From: Dyella sp. GSA-30
Lineage (GTDB): Bacteria > Pseudomonadota > Gammaproteobacteria > Xanthomonadales > Rhodanobacteraceae
DNA: 64,000 nt
Direction of reading: 5' to 3'
NCBI RefSeq assembly: GCF_027924605.1
Contig: NZ_AP027042.1
Span: 5,433,524 to 5,497,523 of the forward strand
The notes beneath the pieces are model-generated. The model worked only from the letters and a program-made list of their open reading frames with translations, did no database searches and had not been told where the DNA came from. This document shows, piece after piece, positions 48,866-63,942 of the stretch. Numbering within the stretch: position 1 is the first letter of the stretch; the number at the start of each line of letters is the position of its first letter. The position numbers and the translations under genes are program-made.

Positions 48866-49333
48866 GTGAAAACACAGCTTTCTCATCTCGCCAAGGCAGG
48901 CGTTGCTGTTGCCGCCGCATTTGCCGTCACCGGTTGCGGTACGCCTGCAGCGAAGGATTTCGGTGGCCGCTGGAAATCCGTCAACCAGTTTCAAAAAGAC
49001 ACCACGGAAATTCCACTCGCACAGCCCTACGTGTTTTTCCCTGCCCCCATGGACGGCACCTTGAAAGCCATGTTGACGCGGTGGTCGAAAGACACCGGCT
49101 TGCTGCTCTCCTATCAGGTGCTGTCCGACTTCACCTTGACGGCGGCCGCGGCGCGCATCCACACGCCAAACCTTCGTGCCGCCGCAGCCGAGCTCAACGC
49201 CGTGTACGCGCCGCAAGGCGTGTCGATCTCGGTAAATCAGCGACAGATCGTCGTGCAGCCATTGGCTGCGCCGACACCCGATGCGCCACCTCGCGCTCCG
49301 CCTGAAGGGACAGCAGACCGCAGCGGGATCTAG
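48866..49333 (+). CDS. virB7: T4SS outer-membrane lipoprotein VirB7 with N0 domain (first copy)
   Basis: The 155-aa product starts at GTG and has a lipoprotein signal with lipobox VTGC at about residue 24. The mature part carries a short VirB9-binding stretch and then an N0/STN-like domain (MDGTLKAMLTRWSKDTGLLL onward, to about residue 132). A Pro-rich tail ends the protein. An N0 domain on VirB7 is a hallmark of the Xanthomonas-type T4SS, where it rings the outer-membrane pore. In Xanthomonas citri virD4 precedes virB7, but here yraN does. A second copy lies at 63430. Confidence 0.85.
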   Translation: MKTQLSHLAKAGVAVAAAFAVTGCGTPAAKDFGGRWKSVNQFQKDTTEIPLAQPYVFFPAPMDGTLKAMLTRWSKDTGLLLSYQVLSDFTLTAAAARIHTPNLRAAAAELNAVYAPQGVSISVNQRQIVVQPLAAPTPDAPPRAPPEGTADRSGI

Positions 49334-49377
49334 GTTGGACCCGCAACGCCAGAGCAAGCTTATATGGACATTGGACG

Positions 49378-50274
49378 ATGTTGAGCAAGAAAACTTCAAG
49401 CAAGAAGATCGATGAAGCCATCGGCAAATCGGTCAATTTCGAATTGACGATCGCCGACATGGCCAGGCGCAGCGAACGACGCGCCTGGTGGGTGGCCGGC
49501 GCGACCATCGTGATGGCGCTGATTCTCGCCGGCGGCTATTTCTACATGCTTCCGCTGAAGGAAAAAGTCCCTTACATCGTGATGGCCGATGCCTATACCG
49601 GCACCAGCACCGTCGCACGACTGACCGACGATTTCCGCAACCGGCAGATCTCCACGAGCGAAGCCATCAATCGCAGCAACGTGGCGCATTTCATCATGGC
49701 GCGCGAGTCTTACGACGTGGCGATGATGAACCTGCGCGACTGGGTCACCGTGTTGACCATGTCCTCGCCGGAGGTCGCCGCTGCGTACAAGACACTTCAC
49801 GCCCCCAACAATCCGGATGCGCCGTACAACGTCTACGGCCGTGACAAGGCGATCCGCATCAAGATCCTGAGCACCGTGCTTCTCGGCGGCGGTCCTGGCA
49901 AGACGCCCAACGGCGCAACCGTCCGGTTTCAACGCAGCTTGTACGACAAGAAGACCGGCTCGTCGCAGCTGATCGATAACAAGATCGCCACCATGAAGTT
50001 CGTCTACAAGCCCAACTTGCAGATGGACGAGCGGTATCGCATCGAGAACCCGTTGGGTTTTCAGGTCACCGAGTACCGCGTCGACAACGACTACGCGTCG
50101 TCAGCTCCGGCGGAAGTGCAAGGCGATGCGCCGCCATCTCCGGCGCCCGCGCCGGCCAGCAGCACCACTGGCGCCGATGCCATGCAGCAGGGCCTGAGCG
50201 CGCCACCCGTGACCGAACAGGGCGAGCAGCCGCCTGCCGCGCAGACCCCGTCGCGGGGAGCAGGCCGCCGATGA
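49378..50274 (+). CDS. virB8: T4SS inner-membrane protein VirB8
   Basis: VirB8 is a bitopic assembly factor. The 298-aa protein has a cytoplasmic N-terminus and one membrane helix (WWVAGATIVMALILAGGYFY). A periplasmic NTF2-like domain runs to about residue 235, with MARESYDVAMMNLRDWVTVL. A Pro/Ala/Ser-rich C-terminal tail of about 60 residues goes beyond the usual VirB8 domain. It starts 44 nt after virB7 and its stop overlaps virB9 as ATGA. Confidence 0.92.
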   Translation: MLSKKTSSKKIDEAIGKSVNFELTIADMARRSERRAWWVAGATIVMALILAGGYFYMLPLKEKVPYIVMADAYTGTSTVARLTDDFRNRQISTSEAINRSNVAHFIMARESYDVAMMNLRDWVTVLTMSSPEVAAAYKTLHAPNNPDAPYNVYGRDKAIRIKILSTVLLGGGPGKTPNGATVRFQRSLYDKKTGSSQLIDNKIATMKFVYKPNLQMDERYRIENPLGFQVTEYRVDNDYASSAPAEVQGDAPPSPAPAPASSTTGADAMQQGLSAPPVTEQGEQPPAAQTPSRGAGRR

Positions 50275-51041
50275 ACCGGACAACCAAACATCCTCTGGCC
50301 GGCATGCTGGGCTTGGCGCTTGCCTGCGCGGTGCAGACAGCCGCCGCGCAAGTCGTTCAGCAATACGAGTTCCAACCCGACCGCATCTATCAGGTGCGCA
50401 CCGGCCTTGGCATCACGACGCAGATCGAACTGAGCCAACACGAAAAAATCCTCGATTACAGCACCGGCTTCAGTAGTGGCTGGGATCTGACGCGCCGTAA
50501 CAACGTGTTCTATCTCAAGCCGAAGAACGTCGATGTCGACACCAACATGGTGATCCGCACGGAGACGCACTCGTACATCTTCGAGCTCAAGGTGGTCGCC
50601 ACCGACTGGAAGTCGCTCGAGCAGGCCAAGCGCGCTGGCGTGCAGTACAAGATCGAGTTTGCTTACCCGGGCGACACGAGCTTTTCGGACGAGGCGAAGA
50701 AAGCGGCGGACGTTCCCGAGCTGAGCACCGCGCTGGTCAAGGGACGCAGCTATAACTTCGATTACGACTACGCCACCCACGACATCAAGAAGACGCCCTG
50801 GCTGATTCCGATCAACGTCTATGACGATGGTCAGTTCACCTATATCCGGATGGGCGACCTCAAGCAGTTTCCGACCGGCAACTTTCCGGCCGTTTTCATG
50901 CGCGAGAAGGAGCACGGCGAGGACGCCGTGGTCAACACGACGATCGAGGGAAACACGATCGTCGTCCATGGCACGTATCCCTACTTGATCATCCGCCAAG
51001 ACAAGAACGTCGTCGGCCTGCGAAGGAACGTTAAAAAGTGA
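50271..51041 (+). CDS. virB9: T4SS outer-membrane complex protein VirB9
   Basis: VirB9 forms the periplasmic and outer-membrane core with VirB7 and VirB10. The 256-aa protein has a signal peptide (LAGMLGLALACAVQTAAAQ) and the two VirB9 lobes. Family segments are QVRTGLGITTQIELSQHEKI and NVFYLKPKNVDVDTNMVI. Its stop overlaps the GTG start of virB10. Confidence 0.93.
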   Translation: MNRTTKHPLAGMLGLALACAVQTAAAQVVQQYEFQPDRIYQVRTGLGITTQIELSQHEKILDYSTGFSSGWDLTRRNNVFYLKPKNVDVDTNMVIRTETHSYIFELKVVATDWKSLEQAKRAGVQYKIEFAYPGDTSFSDEAKKAADVPELSTALVKGRSYNFDYDYATHDIKKTPWLIPINVYDDGQFTYIRMGDLKQFPTGNFPAVFMREKEHGEDAVVNTTIEGNTIVVHGTYPYLIIRQDKNVVGLRRNVKK

Positions 51042-52192
51042 GCCCTCATACGCATCACGCCGATGACGATGCCGACGGCATCGGCCACGCCGATCTGCCC
51101 GAGCAGGACGCCAATCCCTATTCGGTGCAATACACGCGCGAAACGACCGCCCCTGACCTCGACGCGAAGGCCCCACAACTCCGCTCGGCCGACGTACGAC
51201 GGATGAACCATCGCGCCATGTTGTTCCTGGCGGGCATTGTGGTGCTGGTGATCGCCGCGGCGATCTGGATGATGAACACCGCATCGCAACGCAGCGACGA
51301 CGCACCCAAGCCGCGCTCGGAGACCGTCTCGATTCCCGATGCCCCCAGGGCCTTGCCCATGTTGCCGCCGCCGGACGCACCGGAAAAGCGAGCTGCTGCG
51401 ATTCCGTTGGCTTCGGTGCCGCCGTTGCCCGACGTCCGCCAGATGCCACCGCCGGTCGCGTCCGAAGGACCGCGTGGACCGTCGTTGATGGAGCGCCGCA
51501 TGGAACAGGGCAATGGCTCCAGCCAGGCGGCTCCTGCCAACCCGGCGGTAGCGGCGGCCGATACGACGCCCAACGATGCGGTTACCAGCGCGCAGCCGTT
51601 GACTCATCCCGATGCGATCATGCTTCGCGGCACATACATCCGCTGTGTGCTGGAAACACGCGTGATCACGGACATTCCGGGATTCACTTCCTGTGTCGTG
51701 ACGGAGCCGGTGTATTCGTTCAACGGCAAGCGCCTGTTGCTGCCCAAGGGCTCGAAGGTGCTGGGCAAGTACGACACCGTTCCCACCACCGACCGCGTCG
51801 CCGTGATCTGGGATCGCATCGTCACGCCCACCGGCATCGATGTAAACATGGCCAGCCCGGGCGTGGATGGGCTCGGCGGCGCGGGGCATCCGGGCCATCT
51901 CAATTCGCATTGGGGTAGCCGTATCGGTGCGGCGCTGCTGATCAGCATCCTCAGCGATGCGTTCAAGTACGAAGGCGCCAAGCACGGCCCCAGCACGACC
52001 GCCATGGGCAACGGCTTTGCAGTGCAGTCGCCGTACGAAAGCAACACCGCGCAGACGCTGCAGAACCTTTCGCAGCAAGCCGTGCAGCGATCGGCCAACC
52101 GCCCGCCGACGGTCACCATCAACCAGGGCACGGTCGTGAACATCTACGTCGCTAAAGACGTCGATTTCAGCGGCGTGGTCGCGAGGTTCTAA
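51038..52192 (+). CDS. virB10: T4SS core-complex protein VirB10
   Basis: VirB10 spans from the inner membrane to the outer-membrane pore. The 384-aa protein starts at GTG and has a membrane helix near residues 58-76 (AMLFLAGIVVLVIAAAIWMM). A Pro-rich linker covers about 90-190. The TrbI/VirB10 beta-barrel domain includes LLPKGSKVLGKYDTVPTTDR. The antenna-like region lies toward the C-terminus near GSRIGAALLISILSDAF. Confidence 0.93.
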   Translation: MSPHTHHADDDADGIGHADLPEQDANPYSVQYTRETTAPDLDAKAPQLRSADVRRMNHRAMLFLAGIVVLVIAAAIWMMNTASQRSDDAPKPRSETVSIPDAPRALPMLPPPDAPEKRAAAIPLASVPPLPDVRQMPPPVASEGPRGPSLMERRMEQGNGSSQAAPANPAVAAADTTPNDAVTSAQPLTHPDAIMLRGTYIRCVLETRVITDIPGFTSCVVTEPVYSFNGKRLLLPKGSKVLGKYDTVPTTDRVAVIWDRIVTPTGIDVNMASPGVDGLGGAGHPGHLNSHWGSRIGAALLISILSDAFKYEGAKHGPSTTAMGNGFAVQSPYESNTAQTLQNLSQQAVQRSANRPPTVTINQGTVVNIYVAKDVDFSGVVARF

Positions 52193-52198
52193 AAGCAT

Positions 52199-53245
52199 AT
52201 GAACATGGATGACGGCGCCATCGCGCAGGTTTCAAACGAATTCCTGGAATACCAGTACGAAGTGCTGGGTATCCGGGAGTTCATGGCGTCGCCGGACGTC
52301 ACCGAAATCTGCATCAACCGCCCTGGCGAGCTTTATCTGGAGAGCCGGGGCGGCTGGCAGCGTGTGGAGGTGCCCTCCCTCAGCTTCGAGCGTGCCCGCC
52401 AGTTCTGTACCGCGGTAGTGAACGAGAGCAACACCGGACAGCGCATCACCGATGTCGACCCGGTCGTCTCGCTCACCTTCCCCACCGGTCAGCGTGCGCA
52501 GTTCGTCATCCCGCCGGCGGTCGACGCCGGCAAGATCTCCATCACCATCCGTCTGCCCTCCAAGCAGACCAAGACCCTGGCCCAGTACCAGTCGGACGGC
52601 TTCTTCGACGAGATTCTGGAAAACCCGCCGGAGATCAGCGCCGGCGATCGTGAGCTGCTGGACCTGCGCGGCAGCCGGCGTTACGCCGATTTCTTTCGCC
52701 AGGCCGTGCTCAACAAGAAGAACATCGTCGTCGCCGGTGCTACCGGTAGCGGCAAGACCACCTTCATGAAGTCGCTGGTACATCACATTCCGGCTGACGA
52801 ACGCCTGGTGACCATCGAGGACGCCCGCGAGCTGTTCATCGACCAGCCCAACGTGGTGCACCTGCTTTATTCCAAGGGCGGTCAGAGCACCAGCAACGTC
52901 ACCGCCAAGAGCTGCATGGAAGCATGCCTGCGTATGAAGCCCGACCGCATTATTCTGGCCGAGCTGCGCGGTGATGAATCGTTCTACTTCATCCGTAACT
53001 GCGCCTCCGGTCACCCCGGTTCGATCACCAGCTGCCACGCCGGCAGCACCGAGCAGACCTGGGACCAGCTGGCCTTGATGGTCAAGGCGTCCAATGAAGG
53101 TGCCGGGCTCGAGTTCGAGACCATCAAGCGCCTGCTGATGATGACCATCGACATCGTCGTGCACATCAAGGCACATGCCGGCCGCCGCTACATCACCGGT
53201 ATCGATTTCAACCCGGGCCGCCATCTGGCGGAACACCGGGCATAG
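52199..53245 (+). CDS. virB11: T4SS ATPase VirB11
   Basis: This hexameric cytoplasmic traffic ATPase has 348 aa. Walker A is VVAGATGSGKTTFMKSLV at about residue 178. The Asp box reads LVTIEDARELFI, Walker B is RIILAELRGDESFYFI, and the His box is GHPGSITSCHAGS. It sits 6 nt after virB10. Confidence 0.96.
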   Translation: MNMDDGAIAQVSNEFLEYQYEVLGIREFMASPDVTEICINRPGELYLESRGGWQRVEVPSLSFERARQFCTAVVNESNTGQRITDVDPVVSLTFPTGQRAQFVIPPAVDAGKISITIRLPSKQTKTLAQYQSDGFFDEILENPPEISAGDRELLDLRGSRRYADFFRQAVLNKKNIVVAGATGSGKTTFMKSLVHHIPADERLVTIEDARELFIDQPNVVHLLYSKGGQSTSNVTAKSCMEACLRMKPDRIILAELRGDESFYFIRNCASGHPGSITSCHAGSTEQTWDQLALMVKASNEGAGLEFETIKRLLMMTIDIVVHIKAHAGRRYITGIDFNPGRHLAEHRA

Positions 53246-53265
53246 ACGAATCGGGAGAACGCCAG

Positions 53266-54075
53266 ATGATCGCTGGAATGGAAATGATGTCCTGCCCCAA
53301 CCTGTCGGTTCCCGCCGAGGTGATGCAGCACATCGTCAATGTGGAGTCGGGCAAGAACCCGTATGCCATCGGCGTCGTTGGCGGCCAGCTCGTGCGTCAA
53401 CCGCAGAACCTCGACGAAGCCATTGCCACGGCGCAGATGCTCGAGTCGAAGGGTTACAACTATTCGTTGGGCATTGCGCAGGTCAATCGCAACAACCTCG
53501 GCAAGTACGGCATCGATTCCTACGAAAAAGCCTTCGATCGCTGCACCAACCTGCAAACCGGCTCGCGCATCCTGGCCGACTGCTACCGCAGCGCCGGTGG
53601 CGACTGGGGCAAATCGTTCAGTTGTTACTACTCCGGCAACTTTGTCACGGGCTATCGGCATGGCTACGTGCAAAAAATCTATGCCTCCATGCAGGGCGAC
53701 ACCCGCGTGCCGACGGCGCCCGTCCCGTTGGCCGATGCAAGGCAGGCTCGCGTGCCGTCGCAAGCCGTCTCGGCGACCAACGGCGCCGCCTATCGCGTCG
53801 CCATCCGCAGCAGCGCGCTCGATACCGCCAGCGTGGCCGCTACCGCCGCCATACATGCCGCGCTACCGGCCGCGGCGACGAAGCCTTCCTCACCCACGCT
53901 GTCGCCCCCGGCGTTGCCCTCATCCGGCGTTTCCGACGAGGGCCTTTTCGTCCCCGTCGTGCGCGGCCCCAACGATCCTGCCACACCCGTACCGATGGCC
54001 GTCGCACCTGCGGCGTCCGCCGTTACACCCAACCCACAACAACACGACACCCGCGATGCCGCATTTGTCTTTTGA
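53266..54075 (+). CDS. virB1: T4SS lytic transglycosylase VirB1
   Basis: VirB1 locally opens peptidoglycan for assembly of the machine. The SLT domain occupies about residues 8-135. The catalytic Glu is in HIVNVESGKNPYAIG, and SLGIAQVNRNNLGKYG follows. The 269-aa protein ends in a long Ala/Pro/Ser-rich tail. No obvious signal peptide is visible from the chosen ATG, so export may be unusual or the true start may differ. Confidence 0.88.
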   Translation: MIAGMEMMSCPNLSVPAEVMQHIVNVESGKNPYAIGVVGGQLVRQPQNLDEAIATAQMLESKGYNYSLGIAQVNRNNLGKYGIDSYEKAFDRCTNLQTGSRILADCYRSAGGDWGKSFSCYYSGNFVTGYRHGYVQKIYASMQGDTRVPTAPVPLADARQARVPSQAVSATNGAAYRVAIRSSALDTASVAATAAIHAALPAAATKPSSPTLSPPALPSSGVSDEGLFVPVVRGPNDPATPVPMAVAPAASAVTPNPQQHDTRDAAFVF

Positions 54076-54224
54076 TTCCACCGGCATCGCATCTGCGTCA
54101 TCGCACGACCGGCAACACCAGAAAAGGTTTCAGTAAGTAGTACGGACCGCCCTCAAAGGCAGTCGTTTGCAACGCGACGAACATGGAACGTCGCGAGTCT
54201 TCAACCCAACGGAAAGAGTGTCAC

Positions 54225-54614
54225 ATGAAAAACACACCGCCCTCTCACTCGCACAAGCACTTGCTGTCGGCCATGCTCATAAGCACCGCCATGGCCGCCC
54301 TGCTCTCGGCGCCAGGCATGGCATGGGCCCAGGAGTTTGCCGGCGCGGACCAGAAGGTCTGCGGCTTCTTCACCAACATCAACGGCCTGCTCAACATGGC
54401 CTCGATCGCAGTGGTGACCATCGCCGTCGTGTTTGCCGGCTACCAGATCGCCTTTGCCCACAAGCGCATTGCCGATGTCGCGCCAGCCCTGATCGGCGGC
54501 GTGCTGATCGGCGCGGCCGGCCAGATCGCCAAGATGGTGATCGGCGACACCGGCCAGCAATGCCAGGCGCAGACCTCGATGGTCGTCGAGTATCTGCTCA
54601 ATCACTATGCATAA
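54225..54614 (+). CDS. virB2: T4SS pilin VirB2
   Basis: This small pilin precursor of 129 aa has a long signal peptide ending AMAALLSAPGMAWAQ. Two hydrophobic helices follow (ASIAVVTIAVVFAGYQIAFA and VAPALIGGVLIGAAGQIAKM). The VirB2 topology and its position before virB3 identify it. The ATG at 54225 has GGAAAGAG upstream. The stop region overlaps virB3 by 8 nt. Confidence 0.9.
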   Translation: MKNTPPSHSHKHLLSAMLISTAMAALLSAPGMAWAQEFAGADQKVCGFFTNINGLLNMASIAVVTIAVVFAGYQIAFAHKRIADVAPALIGGVLIGAAGQIAKMVIGDTGQQCQAQTSMVVEYLLNHYA

Positions 54615-54912
54615 GAACCCGCTGTTTCGAGGCTGCACGCGCCCCGCCATGTTCCTTGGCGTGCCCTATGTACCGTTCTTCATAGGTGCCGGCGCGTGTC
54701 TGCTCCTGGCGATGTACACCAACCTCTTCTATCTGGTGCTGATGCCCATGGTGATCTTTGCCATGCGTCAGATGGCCCGGCGCGACGAAATGATCTTTCG
54801 CCTGCTCGGACTGCGCATGCACTTTCGCATGCGTGTACGCAACCTCCAGCAGAACGACGGCATGTGGGTGTTCTCGCCTAACAGCTATCGCTACGGCAAC
54901 AACAAGACGTAA
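54607..54912 (+). CDS. virB3: T4SS inner-membrane protein VirB3
   Basis: This 101-aa membrane protein begins MHKNPLFRGCTRPAMFLGVP, the typical VirB3 N-terminus. A helical hairpin (FFIGAGACLLLAMYTNLFYL and beyond) follows. It works with VirB4, which is encoded 57 nt downstream as a separate gene, whereas some systems fuse the two. Confidence 0.92.
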   Translation: MHKNPLFRGCTRPAMFLGVPYVPFFIGAGACLLLAMYTNLFYLVLMPMVIFAMRQMARRDEMIFRLLGLRMHFRMRVRNLQQNDGMWVFSPNSYRYGNNKT

Positions 54913-54969: not shown

Positions 54970-57429
54970 ATGTTCACCCCCGACAGCTCCATCAGCGACT
55001 TCATACCGCTATCCACCCACGTCTCACCGACGGTGCTCAAGACCAACGGCGGCGACTTCCTTCTGGTATGGCGCCTGGAGGGCCTGCCCTTTGTCGGGCG
55101 CGAGGAGTGGGAACTCGAACATCGTCACAACACCTTCAACCGCATGTTGCAGACGCTGCGTGCGCCGGACTTTGTCAACGTTGCCTTCTGGGTCCATGAC
55201 GTACGCCGCCGCGGGCGCGTCAGGGACAGCAGCCGCTTCGATCAGCGTTTCAACCAGCAGCTGTCCGATGCGTATTACAATGCATTGTCGGCGCAGAAGC
55301 TGATGCAGAACGAGCTTTATCTCACCATGCTTTATCGCCCCATGGTGAGCGGAAAACGCTTTGCCGAAAAATCGGCCGACGTCAGCCGCCTGCAGGCCGA
55401 GCAGGACCAGTCGATCGCCACCGTGCGCGAGCTGGCCGGCAACGTCGAGGCCGTGCTGAAGGACTACGCCCCCACCCGCCTGGGCATGTATGAAGCCGCC
55501 AACGGCTTGGTGTTTTCCGAAGCCCTGGAGTTCTTCGGCTATCTGCTCAACCGCATTCAGGAGCCGGTGCCGGTGCTGCCGGCCCCGGCCTATAACTACC
55601 TGGCGGTGTCCAAGCATCGCTTCTCAGCAAAAACGGGGGACTTCGTCATCACGACGCCTACCGGCGCGAATCATTTCGGTGGCCTGCTGAACATCAAGGA
55701 ATACACCGACGGCACCTACCCGGGCATCTTGAATGGCCTGAAGTACCTGGATTTCGAATACGTCATCACGCATTCGTTCAGCCCCATGGGCCGCCATGAT
55801 GCACTCAAGGCGCTCGACCGCACCAAGGGGATGATGATCTCCTCCGGCGACAAGGCGGTCAGCCAGATCGCCGAACTCGACCACGCGATGGATCAGCTGG
55901 CTTCGGGCAACTTCGTGCTGGGTGAATACCACTTCACCATCGCGATCTACGCGCCCAGCCAGGAGGCCTTGTCGCAGCAGATTGCCGCGACACGCGCGGA
56001 ACTCTCCAACGCCGGCTTCGTCTCCATCAAGGAGGATCTGGCCGTCACCGCCGCGTTCTACGCCCAGTTGCCCGGCAACTGGCGATACCGCACGCGTCTG
56101 GCGAACGTCAGCTCGCTGAACTTCCTGGGCCTCTCCCCCCTGCACAATTTCGCCACCGGCAAAAAAGAAAACAACCCGTGGGGCGATTGCGTCACCACGC
56201 TGCAGACCACCAACGGACAGCCGTACTACTTCAACTTCCACGCCACCCATCCGGCCGAAAACTCGCTCGGCGAGAAGGCCATCGCCAACACCATGGTGAT
56301 CGGCAAATCCGGTACCGGTAAAACCGCACTGATCAACTTCCTGCTCAGCCAGGTACAGAAACTCAAGCCCTCGCCGACGATCTTCTTCTTCGACAAGGAT
56401 CGTGGCGCGGAGATTTTCGTGCGCGCCTGCGGCGGCAACTATCTCGCGCTGGAAAACGGCAAGCCGACCGGCTTCAACCCGTTCCACTGCGAGCGCAACG
56501 AAGACAATGTGCAGTTCCTGGCCGAACTGATCAAGGTGCTGGCCGGCAAGAGTGTGTACTCCTCGCGCGAGGAAGAAGATATTTTCCGCGCGGTCGAGAA
56601 CATGCTCGATACCCCACAACACCTGCGCAACATGACGAACTTTCAGAAGAGCCTGCCCAACATGGGCGACGACGGCCTGTTCGTGCGCATGAAGAAATGG
56701 ACCGCCGGCAATTCGCTGGGCTGGGTATTTGACAACCCGTTCGACACCATCGACCTCAAGAAAGCCAACATCATCGGTTTCGACTACACCGACATCATCG
56801 ACAACGCCGAAGTGCGAGCGCCGGTGATCAATTACCTGCTGCACCGCCTGGAAGAGCTGATCGATGGCCGTCCGCTGATCTACGTCATGGACGAGTTCTG
56901 GAAGATCCTCGACGGCAAGGGCGGCTTGAAAGAGTTCGCCAAGAACAAACAGAAGACCATCCGTAAGCAGAACGGCTTGGGCATCTTCGCCACGCAGAGT
57001 CCGGAAGACGCACTCGCCAGCGACATCGCCGCCTCGCTGATCGAGCAGACGGCCACCATGATCCTGCTGCCCAACCCCAACGCCAGCCGCGAAGACTACG
57101 TCGAAGGGCTGAAGCTGACCGAAGCCGAATATCAGGTCGTGGTCAGTCTGGACGAACGCTCGCGTTGCTTCCTGGTGAAACAAGGCCACGCCTCCTCGGT
57201 ATGCCAGTTGAACCTGCGCGGCCTCGACGACGCGCTCGCCGTCATCTCCGCCTCGACCGACAACATCGAGATCATGCACGAGATTCTGCAGGCGCAGGCC
57301 GCATCGCTAGGCATCGAACAGGACGCCCTGACGCCGAAACAATGGCTGCAGGCGTTCTACGACAACCGCAAGGGCAGCGGCAAAGGCAAGCCCGCCCCCT
57401 CCACGCCGCGCGCCGTGCGCACGGCCTGA
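54970..57429 (+). CDS. virB4: T4SS ATPase VirB4
   Basis: VirB4 is the large conserved ATPase of the inner-membrane complex. The 819-aa protein carries Walker A in VIGKSGTGKTALINFLLS at about residue 445. Walker B lies in GRPLIYVMDEFWKILDGKGG, and KQNGLGIFATQSPEDALAS follows. The N-terminal CagE/VirB4 domain includes NGGDFLLVWRLEGLPFVG. It is the best phylogenetic marker of this cluster. Confidence 0.96.
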   Translation: MFTPDSSISDFIPLSTHVSPTVLKTNGGDFLLVWRLEGLPFVGREEWELEHRHNTFNRMLQTLRAPDFVNVAFWVHDVRRRGRVRDSSRFDQRFNQQLSDAYYNALSAQKLMQNELYLTMLYRPMVSGKRFAEKSADVSRLQAEQDQSIATVRELAGNVEAVLKDYAPTRLGMYEAANGLVFSEALEFFGYLLNRIQEPVPVLPAPAYNYLAVSKHRFSAKTGDFVITTPTGANHFGGLLNIKEYTDGTYPGILNGLKYLDFEYVITHSFSPMGRHDALKALDRTKGMMISSGDKAVSQIAELDHAMDQLASGNFVLGEYHFTIAIYAPSQEALSQQIAATRAELSNAGFVSIKEDLAVTAAFYAQLPGNWRYRTRLANVSSLNFLGLSPLHNFATGKKENNPWGDCVTTLQTTNGQPYYFNFHATHPAENSLGEKAIANTMVIGKSGTGKTALINFLLSQVQKLKPSPTIFFFDKDRGAEIFVRACGGNYLALENGKPTGFNPFHCERNEDNVQFLAELIKVLAGKSVYSSREEEDIFRAVENMLDTPQHLRNMTNFQKSLPNMGDDGLFVRMKKWTAGNSLGWVFDNPFDTIDLKKANIIGFDYTDIIDNAEVRAPVINYLLHRLEELIDGRPLIYVMDEFWKILDGKGGLKEFAKNKQKTIRKQNGLGIFATQSPEDALASDIAASLIEQTATMILLPNPNASREDYVEGLKLTEAEYQVVVSLDERSRCFLVKQGHASSVCQLNLRGLDDALAVISASTDNIEIMHEILQAQAASLGIEQDALTPKQWLQAFYDNRKGSGKGKPAPSTPRAVRTA

Positions 57430-57435
57430 TTCGAC

Positions 57436-58266
57436 ATGGACGCATACACCATGGCCCCATCTTTCTCCCTAACCCCGTCGTTCCGGCGAACGCCGGAACC
57501 CTGCGTCTTCACACGCCGTATCCTTTCTTTCGCGACAGTCCTTCTCGCCGCACTCGCCACGCCTGCTCACGCTCAATGGAAAGTCGTCGACAACGACGCC
57601 AACCGCACGCTCAAGGACATCCACCAGGACCTGAGCAACACGATCCATAAAGACCTCTCGACCACGCTGCACCAGGATCTGCAGAAGATCCACACCCTCG
57701 GCGGCTACAAGCAACTCGGCGACCGCGCGGTCGATCCGGATCAGCAACTCACCGAGCAGATGCTGCAAAAGGATATCGAGCAGTGCAACAACATCACCAA
57801 AGGCCAGCAGCCCATCTGCGAGGAGATCGTCAAGACGCGCAACGCCCAGATGAACTACATGGTCACCATGTACAAGCTGGCCGCGCAAACGCGTAACGAC
57901 CAACTCAAGCAGATTCAGGACGAGCGTAGCCGGCTGCAAAGTAGCGACTACGGCAAGCTGGAAGACAACACGAACAAGCTCATTGCCCTGCAGACGCAAT
58001 TGCAGATCGATCAGCAACAGACGCAGACGGTCATGTATGCCTATGAGACACGGTTGAAGTACCTGCGTGAACTACAGACCAACTCGACCCATGGCATGCT
58101 GACCGGCAGCGACCCGTCACCCTCCTCGCCGCTGGACATGATCAAGCAGATCGGCGCCGGCCTTGTCACCGGTGTCGCACTCAAGTCCGCGCTTGAAGCC
58201 GAGAAGACTTCCAAGCCGTCCGGCATGAAAACGTTGTCGTCGACGAACGGATGGTCGCCGCTATGA
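57436..58266 (+). CDS. virB5: T4SS periplasmic protein VirB5-like
   Basis: The 276-aa product has a late hydrophobic signal (ILSFATVLLAALATPAHAQ) preceded by an unusually long N-terminal stretch. Part of that stretch is encoded by a GC-rich palindrome (57480-57499), so the true start is uncertain: ATG 57436 or ATG 57451. The mature part is helical and Gln-rich, with IVKTRNAQMNYMVTMYKLAA and repeated Gln-Thr near residue 190. Position between virB4 and virB6 and the coiled-coil nature support VirB5, the minor pilus-tip component. Its stop overlaps virB6 as ATGA. Confidence 0.75.
   Translation: MDAYTMAPSFSLTPSFRRTPEPCVFTRRILSFATVLLAALATPAHAQWKVVDNDANRTLKDIHQDLSNTIHKDLSTTLHQDLQKIHTLGGYKQLGDRAVDPDQQLTEQMLQKDIEQCNNITKGQQPICEEIVKTRNAQMNYMVTMYKLAAQTRNDQLKQIQDERSRLQSSDYGKLEDNTNKLIALQTQLQIDQQQTQTVMYAYETRLKYLRELQTNSTHGMLTGSDPSPSSPLDMIKQIGAGLVTGVALKSALEAEKTSKPSGMKTLSSTNGWSPL
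57480..57499. repeat. Palindrome GTTCCGGCG-AA-CGCCGGAAC inside the virB5 5' end
   Basis: A perfect 9-bp inverted repeat with a 2-nt centre, in the context CCCGTC[palindrome]CC. This is the core of a dispersed repeat I know from xanthomonad-like genomes (CCGTCATTCCGGCGAACGCC type). Here it is translated as SFRRTPEP ahead of the signal peptide. Confidence 0.75.
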
Positions 58267-59399
58267 GCATGCTCGACACACTCAGCGGTTCACCGGTGGC
58301 ACAGGCCGGCCTGGACCTGGGAGGAGCGACACAATTTGTCTTCTTCCAGGTGATCAACGATTTTCTGCGCGACGAAATCGACATCTTTCAATGGTCGCTG
58401 CTGCAGCGCACGACCTTGTGGGTCGGCAGTCTCGCGCTGATCTTCCTGACCCTGTGGATCATGATCCAGGGCTACCGCATCGTCACCGGGCAGTCGCGCG
58501 AGCCGATGATGGCGTTGGTCGGCAACTCGCTCAAAGCCGTCCTGATTATCGGTCTTGCTACCAGCATGGCCGGCGGTTCTTCGCAGCTCTACTGGGCCAT
58601 GACCGACGGCACCGCCAATCAGGTCAGCACGCTCGTTACCGGCAAGAGCAGCAGTCCGTTTCAGAACATCGACAAGAATCTGGCGTACATGCAATTGACG
58701 CTGACCACGATCGATTCGCTCAGTGGTGGACAGGGCAGCGCGCAGGATGACGCCAAGAGCCGGGCGATGTGGTTTACCGGCATTGGCTTGGCGGGGCCTG
58801 GTGTGATTGCCGGCTCGATGTTGTTGCTCAACAAAATCGCCATTGCCCTTTTTATTGGGCTGGGGCCGCTATTCATCCTGGCGTTGCTGTTCCCGCAGAC
58901 GAAGTCGCTTTTCAGTAGGTGGCTTCTCTACGGCATTGGCACGATGTTTTCGTTAGGCGTGTTGAGCTTTACCGTGACGCTGTCTTTAAAGATGGTGCAA
59001 GCCGTTGCAGCATCTTTTCTCGCGCGCTATGCCGCTGCGGACTTTCTCAACCTCGGCAATGAGATGAACGGCATCAATAGCATGGCTCTGCAACAAGGTG
59101 GTTTGGGCCTGGTGCTGTCGATTCTGATTGTTTCGGCTCCGCCCGTGGCGGCGACGTTCTTCCAAGGCACGCTGGCTGCGTTCTCGTCGTATTCGTCGTT
59201 CGGGAATGTGGGGTCGCAGACGGCGCAGTTGCCGCCAGGAGTACCTGGAAGAGGCGAGTCTCCCAAGCCGAACCGTCATACGCAGCACACGAGTGATAGC
59301 CATGACTCCAAAACTGCCACGTACGCTAACTACAGCTCACGCGCCGGAACCGGCGTCAACGCTAACAACGACGACTCCGTAAAAAAGAGTGGAGTATAA
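58263..59399 (+). CDS. virB6: T4SS inner-membrane channel protein VirB6
   Basis: The 378-aa polytopic protein has about six hydrophobic segments, including LWVGSLALIFLTLWIMIQGY, LLLNKIAIALFIGLGPLFIL and LVLSILIVSAPPVAATFFQG. A VirB6/TrbL signature lies near GLGPLFILALLFPQTKSLFS. The C-terminal 60 residues are hydrophilic and Ser/Thr/Asn-rich. Base composition becomes less GC-rich from the second half onward. The start overlaps the virB5 stop as ATGA. Confidence 0.9.
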   Translation: MSMLDTLSGSPVAQAGLDLGGATQFVFFQVINDFLRDEIDIFQWSLLQRTTLWVGSLALIFLTLWIMIQGYRIVTGQSREPMMALVGNSLKAVLIIGLATSMAGGSSQLYWAMTDGTANQVSTLVTGKSSSPFQNIDKNLAYMQLTLTTIDSLSGGQGSAQDDAKSRAMWFTGIGLAGPGVIAGSMLLLNKIAIALFIGLGPLFILALLFPQTKSLFSRWLLYGIGTMFSLGVLSFTVTLSLKMVQAVAASFLARYAAADFLNLGNEMNGINSMALQQGGLGLVLSILIVSAPPVAATFFQGTLAAFSSYSSFGNVGSQTAQLPPGVPGRGESPKPNRHTQHTSDSHDSKTATYANYSSRAGTGVNANNDDSVKKSGV

Positions 59400-59401
59400 G
59401 T

Positions 59402-59887
59402 ATGAAGTATCTATTTTCCTTTTTTTTCACGATATGCGTGACCCCGTCGGTCCTGGCCCAATGTGCTCCGGGCATCCCGGGAGCAGGGAATCCCAACTGT
59501 ATTCCACCTGACGTGCCAGGATCTCCAGGCGGCCAATATCGACCACAAAACACCCCTCAAGAGGCCATATGGGAGAGCCGCTGGGGAGCTATTGCAATCG
59601 ATCCCCAAACTGGGGCTGCAGGGACAGTTACTGGATATCGGACTAAATCTGAAGCTCAAGCAGCAGCTCTTCAAGATTGTGGATCACATGGTTCAAAAAC
59701 CTGCAAAGTTAATCTTGCTTACCATGATCAGTGCGCTGCAATTGCCTGGGGCTCAAGTAGCCATGGCACCGGTAGCGGCCCCTACGAACCAGATGCAAAA
59801 AGAGAGGCCATGCTCGGATGCAAGGACAGCTCAACGGACTGCAAGATTGTGTACAGCGCTTGTAGCTATTCAGAACAAGCTCGGTGA
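59402..59887 (+). CDS. Secreted DUF4189 domain protein
   Basis: The 161-aa protein has a signal peptide (MKYLFSFFFTICVTPSVLAQ). A Pro/Gly-rich segment follows, then a DUF4189-like domain with WGAIAIDPQTGAAGTVTGYR and CAAIAWGSS. Six or more cysteines suggest disulfides. It starts 2 nt after virB6, so it is co-transcribed with the T4SS. Function is unknown. A periplasmic accessory or immunity role is possible by position only. AT content is higher than in the genes before it. Confidence 0.8.
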   Translation: MKYLFSFFFTICVTPSVLAQCAPGIPGAGNPNCIPPDVPGSPGGQYRPQNTPQEAIWESRWGAIAIDPQTGAAGTVTGYRTKSEAQAAALQDCGSHGSKTCKVNLAYHDQCAAIAWGSSSHGTGSGPYEPDAKREAMLGCKDSSTDCKIVYSACSYSEQAR

Positions 59888-59896
59888 GGACAGTCC

Positions 59897-60211
59897 ATGT
59901 CAATCCGAATTCTATCGGTCATATTGGTCGGGCTGACCACCTGTCAAACCGCCCTCGCGGACAAGGGCTACTACGAGTATCTCCAGTACTACAACAACGA
60001 TCCCTTTACCTTCTGCACAGTCGGCGTGCCGGAAGACTGTTGGGCGCCTATCGATGCCGCAACGGGCACGTTCACCGTGACCAATCAGTATTGCTTCAAT
60101 CCGGTCTCCGCAGCCACATTCGCACGAGTCTGCCCGAGAGCGTTCAACAATGTCAGCTCTGGCACCGACTCAGTATCGACACCAAACGACCCTGCTGACG
60201 CCAGCCCGTGA
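59897..60211 (+). CDS. Small secreted cysteine-containing protein, unknown
   Basis: The 104-aa product has a signal peptide (MSIRILSVILVGLTTCQTAL, then AD). A Tyr-rich mature part (KGYYEYLQYYNNDPFTFC) holds four cysteines, and the end is Ser/Asp/Pro-rich. It starts 9 nt after the DUF4189 gene stop. I do not recognise the family. Its place in the T4SS operon suggests a periplasmic accessory. Confidence 0.7.
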   Translation: MSIRILSVILVGLTTCQTALADKGYYEYLQYYNNDPFTFCTVGVPEDCWAPIDAATGTFTVTNQYCFNPVSAATFARVCPRAFNNVSSGTDSVSTPNDPADASP

Positions 60212-60247: not shown

Positions 60248-60844
60248 ATGAAGCTTTCTCACGCCATGCTTGCCTTGTCTCTCACCTTCGCCACAACCGC
60301 CTGTGGATCACATATGAAAACGCCAGACATCAAGAAGAACCCGCATCCGAAGATGCGCTACGAATTGACCATGACGATCAAGGATGCACCGGGGCAGTTT
60401 GATTCGATAACGGGATTCGTGCAGTACGAAGTACTGAACAAAGCATGCGTGCCGGAGACGGGCGGTCCGATGAATGCCATGCGACTTGCTCCGCAGCTTG
60501 ACCCACCGCTTGAATTTACTCGCATCAACGACTCGGAATACCGCGCTACCGTCTATCTCGATCGTCTTCAAGACGAAGACTACTACGGCCTTGGCGTATG
60601 TCGTTGGTCGATGACGGGAGTCGTTACGAGGCTGCGCGTTGGCAAGGGCAGGTTTAGTCCAGACCTTAGCCCTGATGAGGTGTTTTCCCAGAAGCCTATA
60701 ACGCGCTATTACGTACACGCTGACTACACAGACCGCGACTCTGAAGGACTACGCACCGGTGAGAGCAGCCTATCCAGCTTCGATCAAGCACACCAGATCG
60801 GAGCGTTCTCAATAACTCTCGCAGCCAAGGAGGCATCGCTCTGA
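60248..60844 (+). CDS. Putative T4SS immunity protein (lipoprotein)
   Basis: The 198-aa product starts MKLSHAMLALSLTFATTACG. ATTAC is a loose lipobox with a Cys at residue 19. The mature part is mainly beta-strand-like, with segments such as MRYELTMTIKDAPGQFDSIT and EYRATVYLDRLQDEDYYGLG. It directly precedes the lipase effector, with the AAGGAGG of that gene inside its 3' end and a CTGA overlap of stop and start. In X-type T4SS loci, exported lipoprotein immunity genes sit next to their cognate effector, so this is the likely antidote. Inference from position and export. Confidence 0.65.
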   Translation: MKLSHAMLALSLTFATTACGSHMKTPDIKKNPHPKMRYELTMTIKDAPGQFDSITGFVQYEVLNKACVPETGGPMNAMRLAPQLDPPLEFTRINDSEYRATVYLDRLQDEDYYGLGVCRWSMTGVVTRLRVGKGRFSPDLSPDEVFSQKPITRYYVHADYTDRDSEGLRTGESSLSSFDQAHQIGAFSITLAAKEASL

Positions 60845-61518
60845 CCATCACCACCCAAGACTATGCCGCCCTGGACAAAGATTCGTATAACGTCCCGGAT
60901 GTTGAAAAAAAAAGGATCGTGGGTGGCATCGAGTACAAAGTTGTTGACTACTACAGCAACCCTGTCACCGGCTATCAGGGCACAGCTTATCAACGCCTCG
61001 ACACCAATGAAGTGGTTATCGCCAGTCGCGGCACCGAGCCTAGCGGCGGTACTGTTCAAGACGCCTTAGCTGACCTTGGCATGATCGTCACCGGCTTTAA
61101 CGCCCAGCTCCCCGACGCACGCGCCTTTGCCAAGCGTGTTCAGGAAAATGTTGATGCCACAGCCGCCCGCAAGGGAATCCCCCTCCCCACCATCACCGCC
61201 ACCGGCCACTCCCTCGGCGGCGCACTGACCGAAGCTCTCGCCTATGAGAATCACTGGCACGGCGAAACCTTTAACGGCTTCGGCGCCGTCGATCTGCAAT
61301 ACAACATTCCCGAAGGCGGAGCGCAGGTCATCAACCACGTTCGCGTCACTGACGTGGTCGGCGCCGCCAATCGCCACTTTGGCGAAGTCCGCTACTACGC
61401 CACACAAGAAGATATCGAAGCGCTCAATACGGCCGGTTACACCAACGCAACGACAGGCGCAACAGCGGGAGCAGCACATGCAACACGCAGTACCACAACC
61501 AGACCAACGACGACGTAG
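60841..61518 (+). CDS. Class 3 lipase, candidate T4SS effector (X-Tfe), truncated and with CTG start
   Basis: The frame reads LTITTQDYAALDKDSYNVPD onward. The lipase core contains GYQGTAYQRLDTNEVVIASR, GTEPSGGT and the nucleophile elbow TATGHSLGGALTEALAYE. Later acids such as VTDVVGAANRHFG may supply the Asp and His. A perfect AAGGAGG lies 7 nt before CTG 60841, which overlaps the upstream TGA, where one would expect ATGA. No ATG follows in frame before the core, and GTG 60919 would remove the family N-terminus. The frame stops at 61518, so the C-terminal XVIPCD secretion signal expected of such effectors is missing. A run of nine A lies at 60905-60913. Either a rarely translated gene or a recent pseudogene. 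Confidence 0.65.
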   Translation: MTITTQDYAALDKDSYNVPDVEKKRIVGGIEYKVVDYYSNPVTGYQGTAYQRLDTNEVVIASRGTEPSGGTVQDALADLGMIVTGFNAQLPDARAFAKRVQENVDATAARKGIPLPTITATGHSLGGALTEALAYENHWHGETFNGFGAVDLQYNIPEGGAQVINHVRVTDVVGAANRHFGEVRYYATQEDIEALNTAGYTNATTGATAGAAHATRSTTTRPTTT

Positions 61519-61865: not shown

Positions 61866-62501
61866 ATGACATGTCGTGCTGCCGCCTCTTTTCTTACCCG
61901 TCGGCATGGAGTGCGGAGCATCGCTCTGTGCGCCTTGCTGTCGGTGTGCGGGCACGCGCTGGCCGCCCTGCAAGGCGAGAACCTGCTGCAACCGTTGCCA
62001 ACGGGTTTCCGGATCGCCAACGAGCAGACCGAGGGGAGTGCTTCGCTGACGGAGATGGTACCGACCAACGAGACGGTGGATCAGTGGTCGCGCATGGTGA
62101 CCACCCAGGTCTACCGCGGCTTGAGCGACGCCTCCTTTTTCAGCAAGTACCAAGGCCAGATGAAGGATCGCTGGGCCAAGGCTTGCGACGTAGCCGATGT
62201 CCAGCCGTTCTCCGACGGCAGCGAGAACGGTTACGTCACCCACGTCTGGTTACAGGTTTGCGCCTTCAAGGACAAGCAGAAGAAGCCTGAGATCACGCTG
62301 TTCAAGTTTATCCAAGGCCGTGATGCAACGTATGTGGTGCAGATGGCCTCTCACTTTCAGCCAACGAAGGCGCAGCTAGCCGAGTGGATGGCGTACCTGG
62401 GCAAGGTAACGGTCTGTGACACGCGCCGCGCGGACTCACCCTGCCCCATCGACGAGTCCACCCGCGTTACGGTAAAGACCGCGCCGGAAGCCGCCAAGTA
62501 A
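61866..62501 (+). CDS. Periplasmic protein of unknown function, possible second immunity factor
   Basis: The 211-aa protein has an export signal (VRSIALCALLSVCGHALA). The mature domain begins ALQGENLLQPLPTGFRIANE. Further segments are LTEMVPTNETVDQWSRMVTT, FKFIQGRDATYVVQMASHFQ and KVTVCDTRRADSPCP. I recall similar exported proteins in Lysobacterales but no established function. Because it follows the decayed effector in the same direction, it may be another immunity or accessory factor. No lipobox is apparent. Confidence 0.7.
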   Translation: MTCRAAASFLTRRHGVRSIALCALLSVCGHALAALQGENLLQPLPTGFRIANEQTEGSASLTEMVPTNETVDQWSRMVTTQVYRGLSDASFFSKYQGQMKDRWAKACDVADVQPFSDGSENGYVTHVWLQVCAFKDKQKKPEITLFKFIQGRDATYVVQMASHFQPTKAQLAEWMAYLGKVTVCDTRRADSPCPIDESTRVTVKTAPEAAK

Positions 62502-63429: not shown

Positions 63430-63942
63430 GTGAAAAAGGTTTACGTAACTCGAGCCCTTGGGGGCGCTTCGATGCTTGCGGCACTGGCCTTGTCCGGCTG
63501 CGGAACTCCGCCGGCAAAGGATTTCGGTGGCTCGTGGAAGCCGGTCAACCGGTTCCAGGATGCGCCCACTGAAATTCCGCTTGCGCAGCCATATGCGTTT
63601 TACGCGTCGCCTATGGACGGCACGCTCAAAGCGATGCTGACACGCTGGTCGAAAGACTCCGGCATGGTGCTGTCCTATCAGCTGCATTCGGACTACACGC
63701 TGTTCAAGCCGGTCTCGCAGATCCACACGCCGAACGCGAAAGCCGCCGCCGCGGAGTTGAGCGCGATCTACGCAAGTGAAGGCGTGCAGATCACCGTGAA
63801 CGATCGCCAGATCGTTGTCGAAGAAGCAACGACCTCGGTCCCTGACGCGACCAGCCCGGCAACCGACGCGCCTCCGGCAGCGGCTCCAGCGCCGGCTCCC
63901 GCCGCTCCAAAGCAAGACGCACCGGCGAGCACCAAGTCATGA
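63430..63942 (+). CDS. virB7: T4SS outer-membrane lipoprotein VirB7 with N0 domain (second copy)
   Basis: The 170-aa product is a clear paralogue of the protein at 48866. Both start at GTG in the context ACGACGTGAAAA, and both have a lipobox (LSGC here) followed by GTP.AKDFGG.WK. They share EIPLAQPY.F, MDGTLKAMLTRWSKD and a final VNDRQIVV-like strand. The tail is longer, rich in Ala and Pro. It begins a second T4SS cluster, since a virB8 start follows 40 nt downstream. Confidence 0.85.
   Translation: MKKVYVTRALGGASMLAALALSGCGTPPAKDFGGSWKPVNRFQDAPTEIPLAQPYAFYASPMDGTLKAMLTRWSKDSGMVLSYQLHSDYTLFKPVSQIHTPNAKAAAAELSAIYASEGVQITVNDRQIVVEEATTSVPDATSPATDAPPAAAPAPAPAAPKQDAPASTKS

What the first reader, a model, noticed from the sequence alone, without database searches (positions are those of the whole stretch)
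48866..53245. VirB7 with an N0 domain marks this as a bacterial-killing X-T4SS
Classical VirB7 lipoproteins are very short. These two copies are 155 and 170 aa and contain a secretin-like N0/STN domain, the distinctive trait of the Xanthomonas citri antibacterial T4SS. The nearby exported lipoprotein and lipase fit an effector-immunity module, and no relaxase or mating genes are seen.
Basis: partly seen in the sequence, partly recalled or inferred. Interest (0 to 1): 0.55.

Follow-up and report, generated by a model that had tools for sequence, protein, structure and literature searches.

The report
Doubled bacteria-killing type IV secretion locus
This bacterium carries the known kind of type IV secretion machine that injects toxins into rival bacteria, but with most of its parts encoded twice side by side and a spare set of two inner parts elsewhere on the chromosome.

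Summary
VirB7 (155 aa, 48866-49333) and a second VirB7 (170 aa, 63430-63942) match X. citri VirB7, N0 domain included (E 2e-35 and 2e-39). The system meets the published X-T4SS criteria: chromosomal, VirB7 with N0, XVIPCD effectors (9 in the genome), VirB4 apart from 10 plasmid VirB4s. Two relaxase families are absent genome-wide. VirB5 rests mainly on position.

Two X-T4SS clusters lie in tandem across the contig junction. Cluster A (window) has virB7-virB6 but no virD4. Cluster B has virB7-virB4, two XVIPCD effectors and virD4, but no virB5/virB6. Their proteins differ by 11-41% except VirB11 (345/346; exact 1,021-bp tract). An unlinked virB5-virB6-DUF4189-DUF4189 cassette lies about 0.56 Mb away. 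Unlinked VirB6 genes recur in 8 of 71 family genomes with VirB6; a few carry C-terminal enzyme domains.

The window 'lipase' is a truncated effector homologue without XVIPCD. Verdict: a known kind in a new, modular arrangement; sharing of parts is inferred.

The parts
48866..49333 (+). virB7A, lipoprotein with N0 domain, 155 aa
   Evidence: phmmer to 6gyb/2l4w/3ov5; TEIPL motif
49378..50274 (+). virB8A, with a 58-aa C-terminal extension, 60% A/Q/G/P
   Evidence: PF04335 E 2.7e-40; composition
50271..51041 (+). virB9A
   Evidence: PF03524 E 1.2e-47
51038..52192 (+). virB10A
   Evidence: PF03743 E 7.4e-52
52199..53245 (+). virB11A ATPase; 345/346 residues identical to virB11B
   Evidence: PF00437 E 2.3e-25
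52343..53363 (.). 1,021-bp tract exactly identical to cluster B (virB11 and the start of virB1); its right edge corresponds to the end of the chromosome contig
53266..54075 (+). virB1A lytic transglycosylase
   Evidence: PF01464 E 6.2e-9
54183..54614 (+). virB2A pilin
   Evidence: PF04956 E 4.8e-14
54607..54912 (+). virB3A
   Evidence: PF05101 E 9.8e-24
54970..57429 (+). virB4A ATPase
   Evidence: PF03135 E 2e-50; tree
57436..58266 (+). virB5A (by position and conservation; no Pfam hit of its own)
   Evidence: VirB5-family ORF upstream of virB6 in 70 of 71 named loci; PF07996 in 3 of 41 homologues; Foldseek inconclusive
58251..59399 (+). virB6A, 'type 1'
   Evidence: PF04610 E 2.6e-28; tree
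59402..59887 (+). DUF4189 exported protein; the family sits behind virB6 in most X-T4SS loci
   Evidence: PF13827 E 1.2e-21; 62 of 71 named loci
59897..60211 (+). small exported protein with homologues in other X-T4SS loci
60248..60844 (+). exported lipoprotein, homologue (39%) of the immunity-like gene of cluster B
   Evidence: a homologue lies directly upstream of the lipase in 31 of 31 named loci that have the lipase
60841..61518 (+). truncated lipase-effector homologue (start at 60841 or 60919), no XVIPCD
61866..62501 (+). exported protein; its only homologue in my locus set is in the Dyella dinghuensis X-T4SS locus (48%)
63430..63942 (+). virB7B, first gene of cluster B (B8-B11 follow in L004; B1-B4, two XVIPCD effectors and virD4 in L005)

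Best explanation
This is a chromosomal Xanthomonadales-type bacteria-killing T4SS (X-T4SS) whose machine genes are doubled in tandem. Cluster A (virB7-virB6) lacks virD4. Cluster B (virB7-virB4, two effectors, virD4) lacks virB5 and virB6. Inferred working: one VirD4 recruits XVIPCD effectors (lipase, NlpC/P60 and other cell-wall enzymes, zeta toxins and others) to VirB4/VirB11 motors, and they leave through an outer-membrane complex of VirB7(N0)/VirB9/VirB10. The cell can build that complex from set A or set B. Set A has its own VirB5/VirB6. Set B must borrow these, either from A or from the unlinked virB5-virB6-DUF4189 cassette 0.56 Mb away. The VirB11 genes are kept identical by recent gene conversion. 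Shown: gene content, homology, absence of two relaxase families, XVIPCD effectors, the identical tract. Inferred: killing, part sharing, function of both cores.
For: VirB7-N0 matches. Eleven VirB genes plus virD4 across A+B. Nine XVIPCD proteins, all over the family cut-off, 0 of 14 control genomes, with PG-binding, NlpC/P60, lipase and zeta-toxin domains among them. VirB8 extensions of 58 and 113 aa, 60% and 73% A/Q/G/P, within the published 53-73% range for the order. VirB4 clade. No PF03432 or PF08751 in the genome. VirB7A has no match in 72,556 plasmids at E 1e-3. PF04610 gives three VirB6-type genes (T4SS3, cluster A, the unlinked one); PF10412 gives virD4 of cluster B, virD4 of T4SS3 and one weak hit elsewhere. 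No virB5/virB6 remnant behind virB4B. dN/dS 0.03-0.30 for all nine gene pairs. Cluster A lies at the rsmI-lpoA-yraN site used by relatives.
Against: No expression, secretion or killing data. VirB5A is assigned mainly by position; Foldseek gave nothing significant. The exact virB11 tract ends precisely at the contig end, so assembly may have sharpened its identity, although the copies stay about 93% alike for some 170 bp beyond that end. dS near 1 and the undecided A/B tree do not show how long both sets have lived in one genome, so one set could be recent or redundant.
Confidence: 0.85

Rival explanations
1. Two complete, separate X-T4SS machines: cluster B works with the unlinked VirB5/VirB6 pair and both machines share VirD4, so the two channels serve different conditions or effectors.
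For: The unlinked pair is intact and of the other VirB6 type. In two Luteibacter genomes with tandem clusters, one cluster has type-1 and the other type-2 VirB6. G103 also has type-1 VirB6 at its main locus and a type-2 unlinked set.
Against: No physical or expression link between the unlinked pair and cluster B. Its nearest kin are VirB6 of Dyella dinghuensis and another unlinked gene, which says nothing about B.
Confidence: 0.35
2. One set is redundant and on its way out: set A plus VirD4 is the working machine and set B is a leftover that lost virB5/virB6 (or the reverse).
For: B lacks virB5/virB6 and A lacks virD4; the lipase copy beside A is truncated. The second copy in G118 has a stop in virB4.
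Against: All nine duplicated genes are intact in both sets, with dN/dS 0.03-0.30. Core divergence may predate co-residence, so this argument is weak.
Confidence: 0.3
3. A conjugation system or integrative conjugative element.
For: It is a class A VirB/VirD4 machine; a plasmid-type T4SS lies about 20 kb away.
Against: No PF03432 or PF08751 relaxase in the genome, VirB4 in the X-T4SS clade, nine XVIPCD effectors, the same chromosomal site in relatives.
Confidence: 0.03
4. The doubling is an assembly artefact at the contig ends.
For: The exact 1,021-bp repeat ends exactly at the contig end.
Against: All other gene pairs differ by 11-41% in protein, so B is not a copy of A; the virB1B reading frame runs through the junction; tandem clusters occur in other assemblies (G121, G122).
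Confidence: 0.04

Closest known systems
X. citri chromosomal X-T4SS (core complex 6gyb; review PMC6536674, outline, passages and sections 4 and 10 read)
   Same: VirB7 with N0 domain and TEIPL motif, VirB8 A/Q/G/P-rich tail, XVIPCD effectors with immunity genes, no relaxase found, chromosomal virB7-first operon.
   Different: Here most of the operon is doubled, linked virB5/virB6 and virD4 are each in only one cluster, and a second virB5-virB6 pair is unlinked. The review text has one 'duplicat' hit, in the reference list, and no 'paralog'.
Tandem X-T4SS clusters of Luteibacter sp. UNCMF331Sha3.1 (species listed in Table 1 of PMC6536674) and UNC138MFCol5.1
   Same: Two X-T4SS clusters within about 15 kb.
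   Different: There both clusters have a virB6; here cluster B has none.
Rickettsiales T4SS with several VirB6 paralogues (PMC7648143; start of abstract seen in a search listing)
   Same: Several VirB6 genes, some with long C-terminal extensions, in one T4SS.
   Different: Those systems belong to intracellular bacteria; here two VirB6 types exist with linked VirB5 and DUF4189, and the system is antibacterial by homology.
Atypical T4SS effectors without XVIPCD (PMC10989847, abstract and passages read)
   Same: The window lipase lacks XVIPCD and sits behind an immunity-like gene.
   Different: It is truncated after the catalytic part; toxicity unknown.

Membership tests
X-T4SS (criteria as printed in PMC6536674) | located in chromosomal DNA | tested here: met
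   One 5.50-Mb contig; rsmI, lpoA and yraN next to virB7A; same site in many relatives
X-T4SS (criteria as printed in PMC6536674) | VirB7 with C-terminal N0 domain | tested here: met
X-T4SS (criteria as printed in PMC6536674) | all twelve class A subunits present | tested here: met
   Met for A+B together, VirB5 by position and conservation, its fold test inconclusive. Neither cluster alone has all twelve: A lacks virD4, B lacks virB5 and virB6.
X-T4SS (criteria as printed in PMC6536674) | genome encodes effectors with C-terminal XVIPCD | tested here: met
   9 matches to PF20410, all over the cut-off
X-T4SS | VirB8 with A/Q/G/P-rich C-terminal extension | tested here: met
   58 aa 60% (A), 113 aa 73% (B)
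X-T4SS | no relaxase or oriT with the locus | tested here: inconclusive
   PF03432 and PF08751 absent from the genome; other relaxase families and oriT not tested
X-T4SS | contact-dependent killing of Gram-negative bacteria | not testable with these tools
   needs a competition assay
Conjugative MPF_T system | VirB4 groups with conjugative plasmids | tested here: not met
   A and B lie in the 46-row X-T4SS clade (100*), outside 10 plasmid VirB4s; the third T4SS does group with plasmids
X-Tfe effector (window lipase 60841-61518) | C-terminal XVIPCD | tested here: not met
   No PF20410 hit in the window; truncated relative to the 537-aa homologue

The most novel reading that the evidence does not exclude
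In Xanthomonadales killing T4SSs, VirB5-VirB6-DUF4189 is an exchangeable module, like the VgrG/Hcp islands of type VI secretion. It comes in deeply split VirB6 types, is swapped at the main locus, is carried as unlinked cassettes (sometimes with an immunity-lipase pair or an alternative VirB7-VirB9-VirB10 core), leaves displaced virB6 3' ends around effector genes, and in a few genomes VirB6 itself carries an enzyme at its C-terminus (phage lysozyme, SRAP domain, peptidase-like domains). The present genome, with two cores, two VirB5/VirB6 types and one VirD4, would be a machine assembled combinatorially from such parts.
Probability: 0.3. Interest if true: 0.8.

Novelty: new variant of a known kind. 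Interest (0 to 1): 0.5.

Why it matters
The X-T4SS itself is known. What matters is that a killing T4SS can have doubled, diverged core complexes that seem to share one coupling protein, and that VirB5/VirB6 pairs travel separately from the rest. That makes a basic question testable: do VirB6 and VirB5 decide effector or target specificity, or can they be exchanged freely among cores? VirB6 proteins fused to cell-wall enzymes, if real and delivered, would be a new kind of T4SS-borne toxin, comparable with toxin-armed VgrG proteins (comparison recalled).

Tried and rejected
Conjugation reading: rejected by the VirB4 tree, the XVIPCD effectors and the absence of two relaxase families.

Simple recent tandem duplication: not settled. 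The free core tree (B7-B10) parts A and B, but the tree holding them together scored higher and was not rejected (p-AU 0.687; two long rows left out). VirB4 joins them at 93, not starred.

'Cluster B shares only VirB6A': I held this until the PF04610 search showed an unlinked virB6; it is now one of two options.

VirB5 fold: the AlphaFold model of VirB5A has mean pLDDT 70. Foldseek gave no match at E <= 0.001 and no VirB5/TraC among the listed hits. The profile search of PDB sequences gave no T4SS hit and I take its hits as spurious.

DUF4189: the model (mean pLDDT 85.5) matches only Rv1813c (7nhz, E 1.3e-5); no function follows. No paper in the library holds both 'DUF4189' and 'type IV secretion'.

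Remnants of XVIPCD behind the window lipase: none found. My guess that several Xanthomonadaceae second VirB6 hits were unlinked was wrong for 9 of the 15 stretches fetched: virB4 lies next to them.
Full report
Observation. The window is C1:5433524-5497523 of a single 5,501,810-bp contig. virB7A (48866-49333) heads an operon virB7-B8-B9-B10-B11-B1-B2-B3-B4-B5-B6 that ends at 59399. virB7B (63430-63942) heads a second one that runs out of the window. Both VirB7 proteins match the X. citri VirB7 structures over the TEIPL motif and N0 domain. Pfam alone gives only a sub-threshold TcpQ hit. The lack of any hit for VirB7A in 72,556 plasmids fits a chromosomal killing system.

Kind of system. The review PMC6536674 prints four criteria for an X-T4SS (passage): chromosomal, VirB7 with N0, all twelve subunits, XVIPCD effectors. 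All are met by A+B together, with VirB5 the weakest: VirB5A has no Pfam hit, 3 of 41 homologues match PF07996, and the fold search was inconclusive, but a VirB5-family ORF lies directly upstream of virB6 in 70 of 71 named loci examined (80 loci were fetched, of which 71 had a full virB6 and 1.5 kb after it). VirB8 extensions agree with the printed table. The genome has nine XVIPCD proteins, all over the cut-off, none in 14 control genomes. By Pfam two lie in cluster B (NlpC/P60 with PG-binding; lipase), two are zeta toxins, two have PG-binding domains and three show only the XVIPCD. VirB4 of A and B lie in a 46-row X-T4SS branch (100*), apart from ten plasmid VirB4s (a 'quick' tree with long plasmid branches). 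PF03432 and PF08751 relaxases are absent.

Architecture. Cluster B continues over the contig end: B8-B11 in L004, B1-B4 in L005, then an exported ORF (L005 4588-5211), an XVIPCD cell-wall enzyme, an immunity-like gene, an XVIPCD lipase and virD4. virB5 and virB6 are absent and left no trace behind virB4B. Cluster A has virB5/virB6 and DUF4189 but no virD4. Protein identity A/B over aligned codons: VirB7 58.7%, VirB8 66.8%, VirB9 79.3%, VirB10 62.4%, VirB11 99.7%, VirB1 68.0%, VirB2 63.5%, VirB3 76.2%, VirB4 89.4%; dN/dS 0.03-0.30. The virB11 region is 0% different over codons 51-346 while the same windows differ by 9-31% from four relatives. The exact tract is 1,021 bp (52343-53363) and ends at the contig end. 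Beyond that end the copies stay about 93% alike for some 170 bp before diverging. I read this as gene conversion; the assembler may have sharpened the identity.

Is the doubling common? Of 233 family genomes, 68 (my count of rows) have a near full-length VirB4 match at 74% or more. Four of them have two: G000, G121, G122, and G118 (second copy on another contig, with a stop inside). The second copies in G121, G122 and G118 have a virB6. Only the present genome lacks it in one copy. Cluster A lies at the rsmI-lpoA-yraN site used by many relatives.

The unlinked pair. PF04610 finds three VirB6-type genes in the genome: T4SS3, cluster A, and C1:4929732-4930424. The last belongs to a virB5-virB6-DUF4189-DUF4189 cassette (L158 7296-10385, minus strand) between metE-like and ychF-like neighbours (names by eye from the sequences), with a TrbM-like ORF nearby (the TrbM match is below cut-off). 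The genome has only three DUF4189 genes, all behind these two virB6 genes. VirB6 falls into two deep clades (100*); virB6A is in one and the unlinked gene in the other.

Recurrence. In the family scan with the unlinked VirB6, 71 of 233 genomes have a match. By hand, eight of them (G000, G086, G089, G090, G103, G112, G113, G232) hold a VirB6 away from virB4 in addition to the linked one (ten loci), and G054 holds one with only a virB4 fragment. I fetched 10 of these 11 loci (not G113's). A VirB5 is adjacent in 7 of 10, DUF4189 in 8 of 10, an immunity-lipase pair in 3 of 10. One (G103) also has virB7-virB9-virB10. The tree needs 8 label changes for these ten unlinked rows, 7 forced by starred branches, so they did not arise once. 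G159 and G059 are ambiguous because contigs end there.

VirB6 with extra domains. Two of the 10 are fusions: G054 (557 aa: TrbL plus Phage_lysozyme, E 3.4e-23 and 4e-24) and G089 (563 aa, C-terminal part without a significant Pfam match; M15-peptidase-like by eye, a recalled motif). They share a junction motif. From the order scan (123 of 398 genomes matched) I picked 15 stretches for long frames or extra hits, not at random. Nine proved to be main loci beside virB4, one had no VirB6, and five are unlinked by the positions: three further C-terminal extensions (L185 with an SRAP domain, E 2.6e-10; L186 and L187 without further Pfam matches, HExxH-like by eye) and two plain cassettes (L188, L194). 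G444, which carries L185, has no X-type VirB4 match.

Effector-immunity module. The window lipoprotein is 39% identical to the immunity-like gene of cluster B, and the window lipase 52% identical to the first 202 of 537 residues of the cluster B effector. In 31 of 31 named loci with such a lipase (80 examined) an immunity homologue lies directly upstream. XVIPCD-less toxins with immunity partners are published (PMC10989847, passages), so it need not be dead.

Mechanism. Known for X. citri and S. maltophilia (PMC6536674, PMC6759196, passages): VirD4 recognises the XVIPCD and effectors pass to the prey on contact. Here I infer that a single VirD4 serves two cores. Which VirB5/VirB6 joins cluster B is open: VirB6A in trans, or the unlinked pair (rival 1).

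Literature. Searches showed no paper, in titles, abstract starts or the passages I read, on unlinked virB5-virB6 cassettes, doubled X-T4SS cores or VirB6-enzyme fusions. The library is open-access only, so this is not proof of novelty.

Limits. No reads, no expression, no function. Counts for unlinked VirB6 were made by hand from two listings. Domains named 'by eye' are not tested.

Noticed in passing
L005 19045-20000 and L006 1-10867 (C1:19045-30867): A third T4SS (VirB2, B3, B4, B5, B6, B8-B11, VirD4) whose VirB4 groups with an X. hydrangeae plasmid (100*), followed by a lipase-like gene; no relaxase found in the genome for two families.
   Followed up: partly
L174 4348-6021 (G054), L171 5193-6884 (G089), L185 2649-4967 (G444), L186 2011-3786 and L187 2260-3915 (G464): VirB6 proteins with extra C-terminal domains (phage lysozyme and SRAP by Pfam; three without a significant Pfam match), unlinked to virB4.
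   Followed up: partly
L062 15063-17860, L120 17125-18972, L099 17162-21514, L106 17007-17711: Extra virB6 copies, mostly 3' fragments, with DUF4189 genes, in arrays behind the full virB6 and around effector genes, as if modules were inserted by recombination in virB6.
   Followed up: partly
L166 5886-10773 (G103): Unlinked virB7-virB9-virB10-virB5-virB6-DUF4189 set without virB8, virB11, virB1-4 or virD4 in the 13 kb fetched.
   Followed up: partly
59402-59887: DUF4189 is found within 1.5 kb behind virB6 in 62 of 71 named X-T4SS loci; the model resembles Rv1813c. Role unknown.
   Followed up: partly
L170 (G090) and L173 (G086): Two genomes of one genus carry different virB5-virB6 cassettes at what looks like the same chromosomal site (shared phosphatase, methyltransferase and response-regulator neighbours).
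   Followed up: no
L142 (G056 C1:4259665-4262104): X-type virB4 split into two overlapping frames, a frameshift or sequencing error.
   Followed up: no
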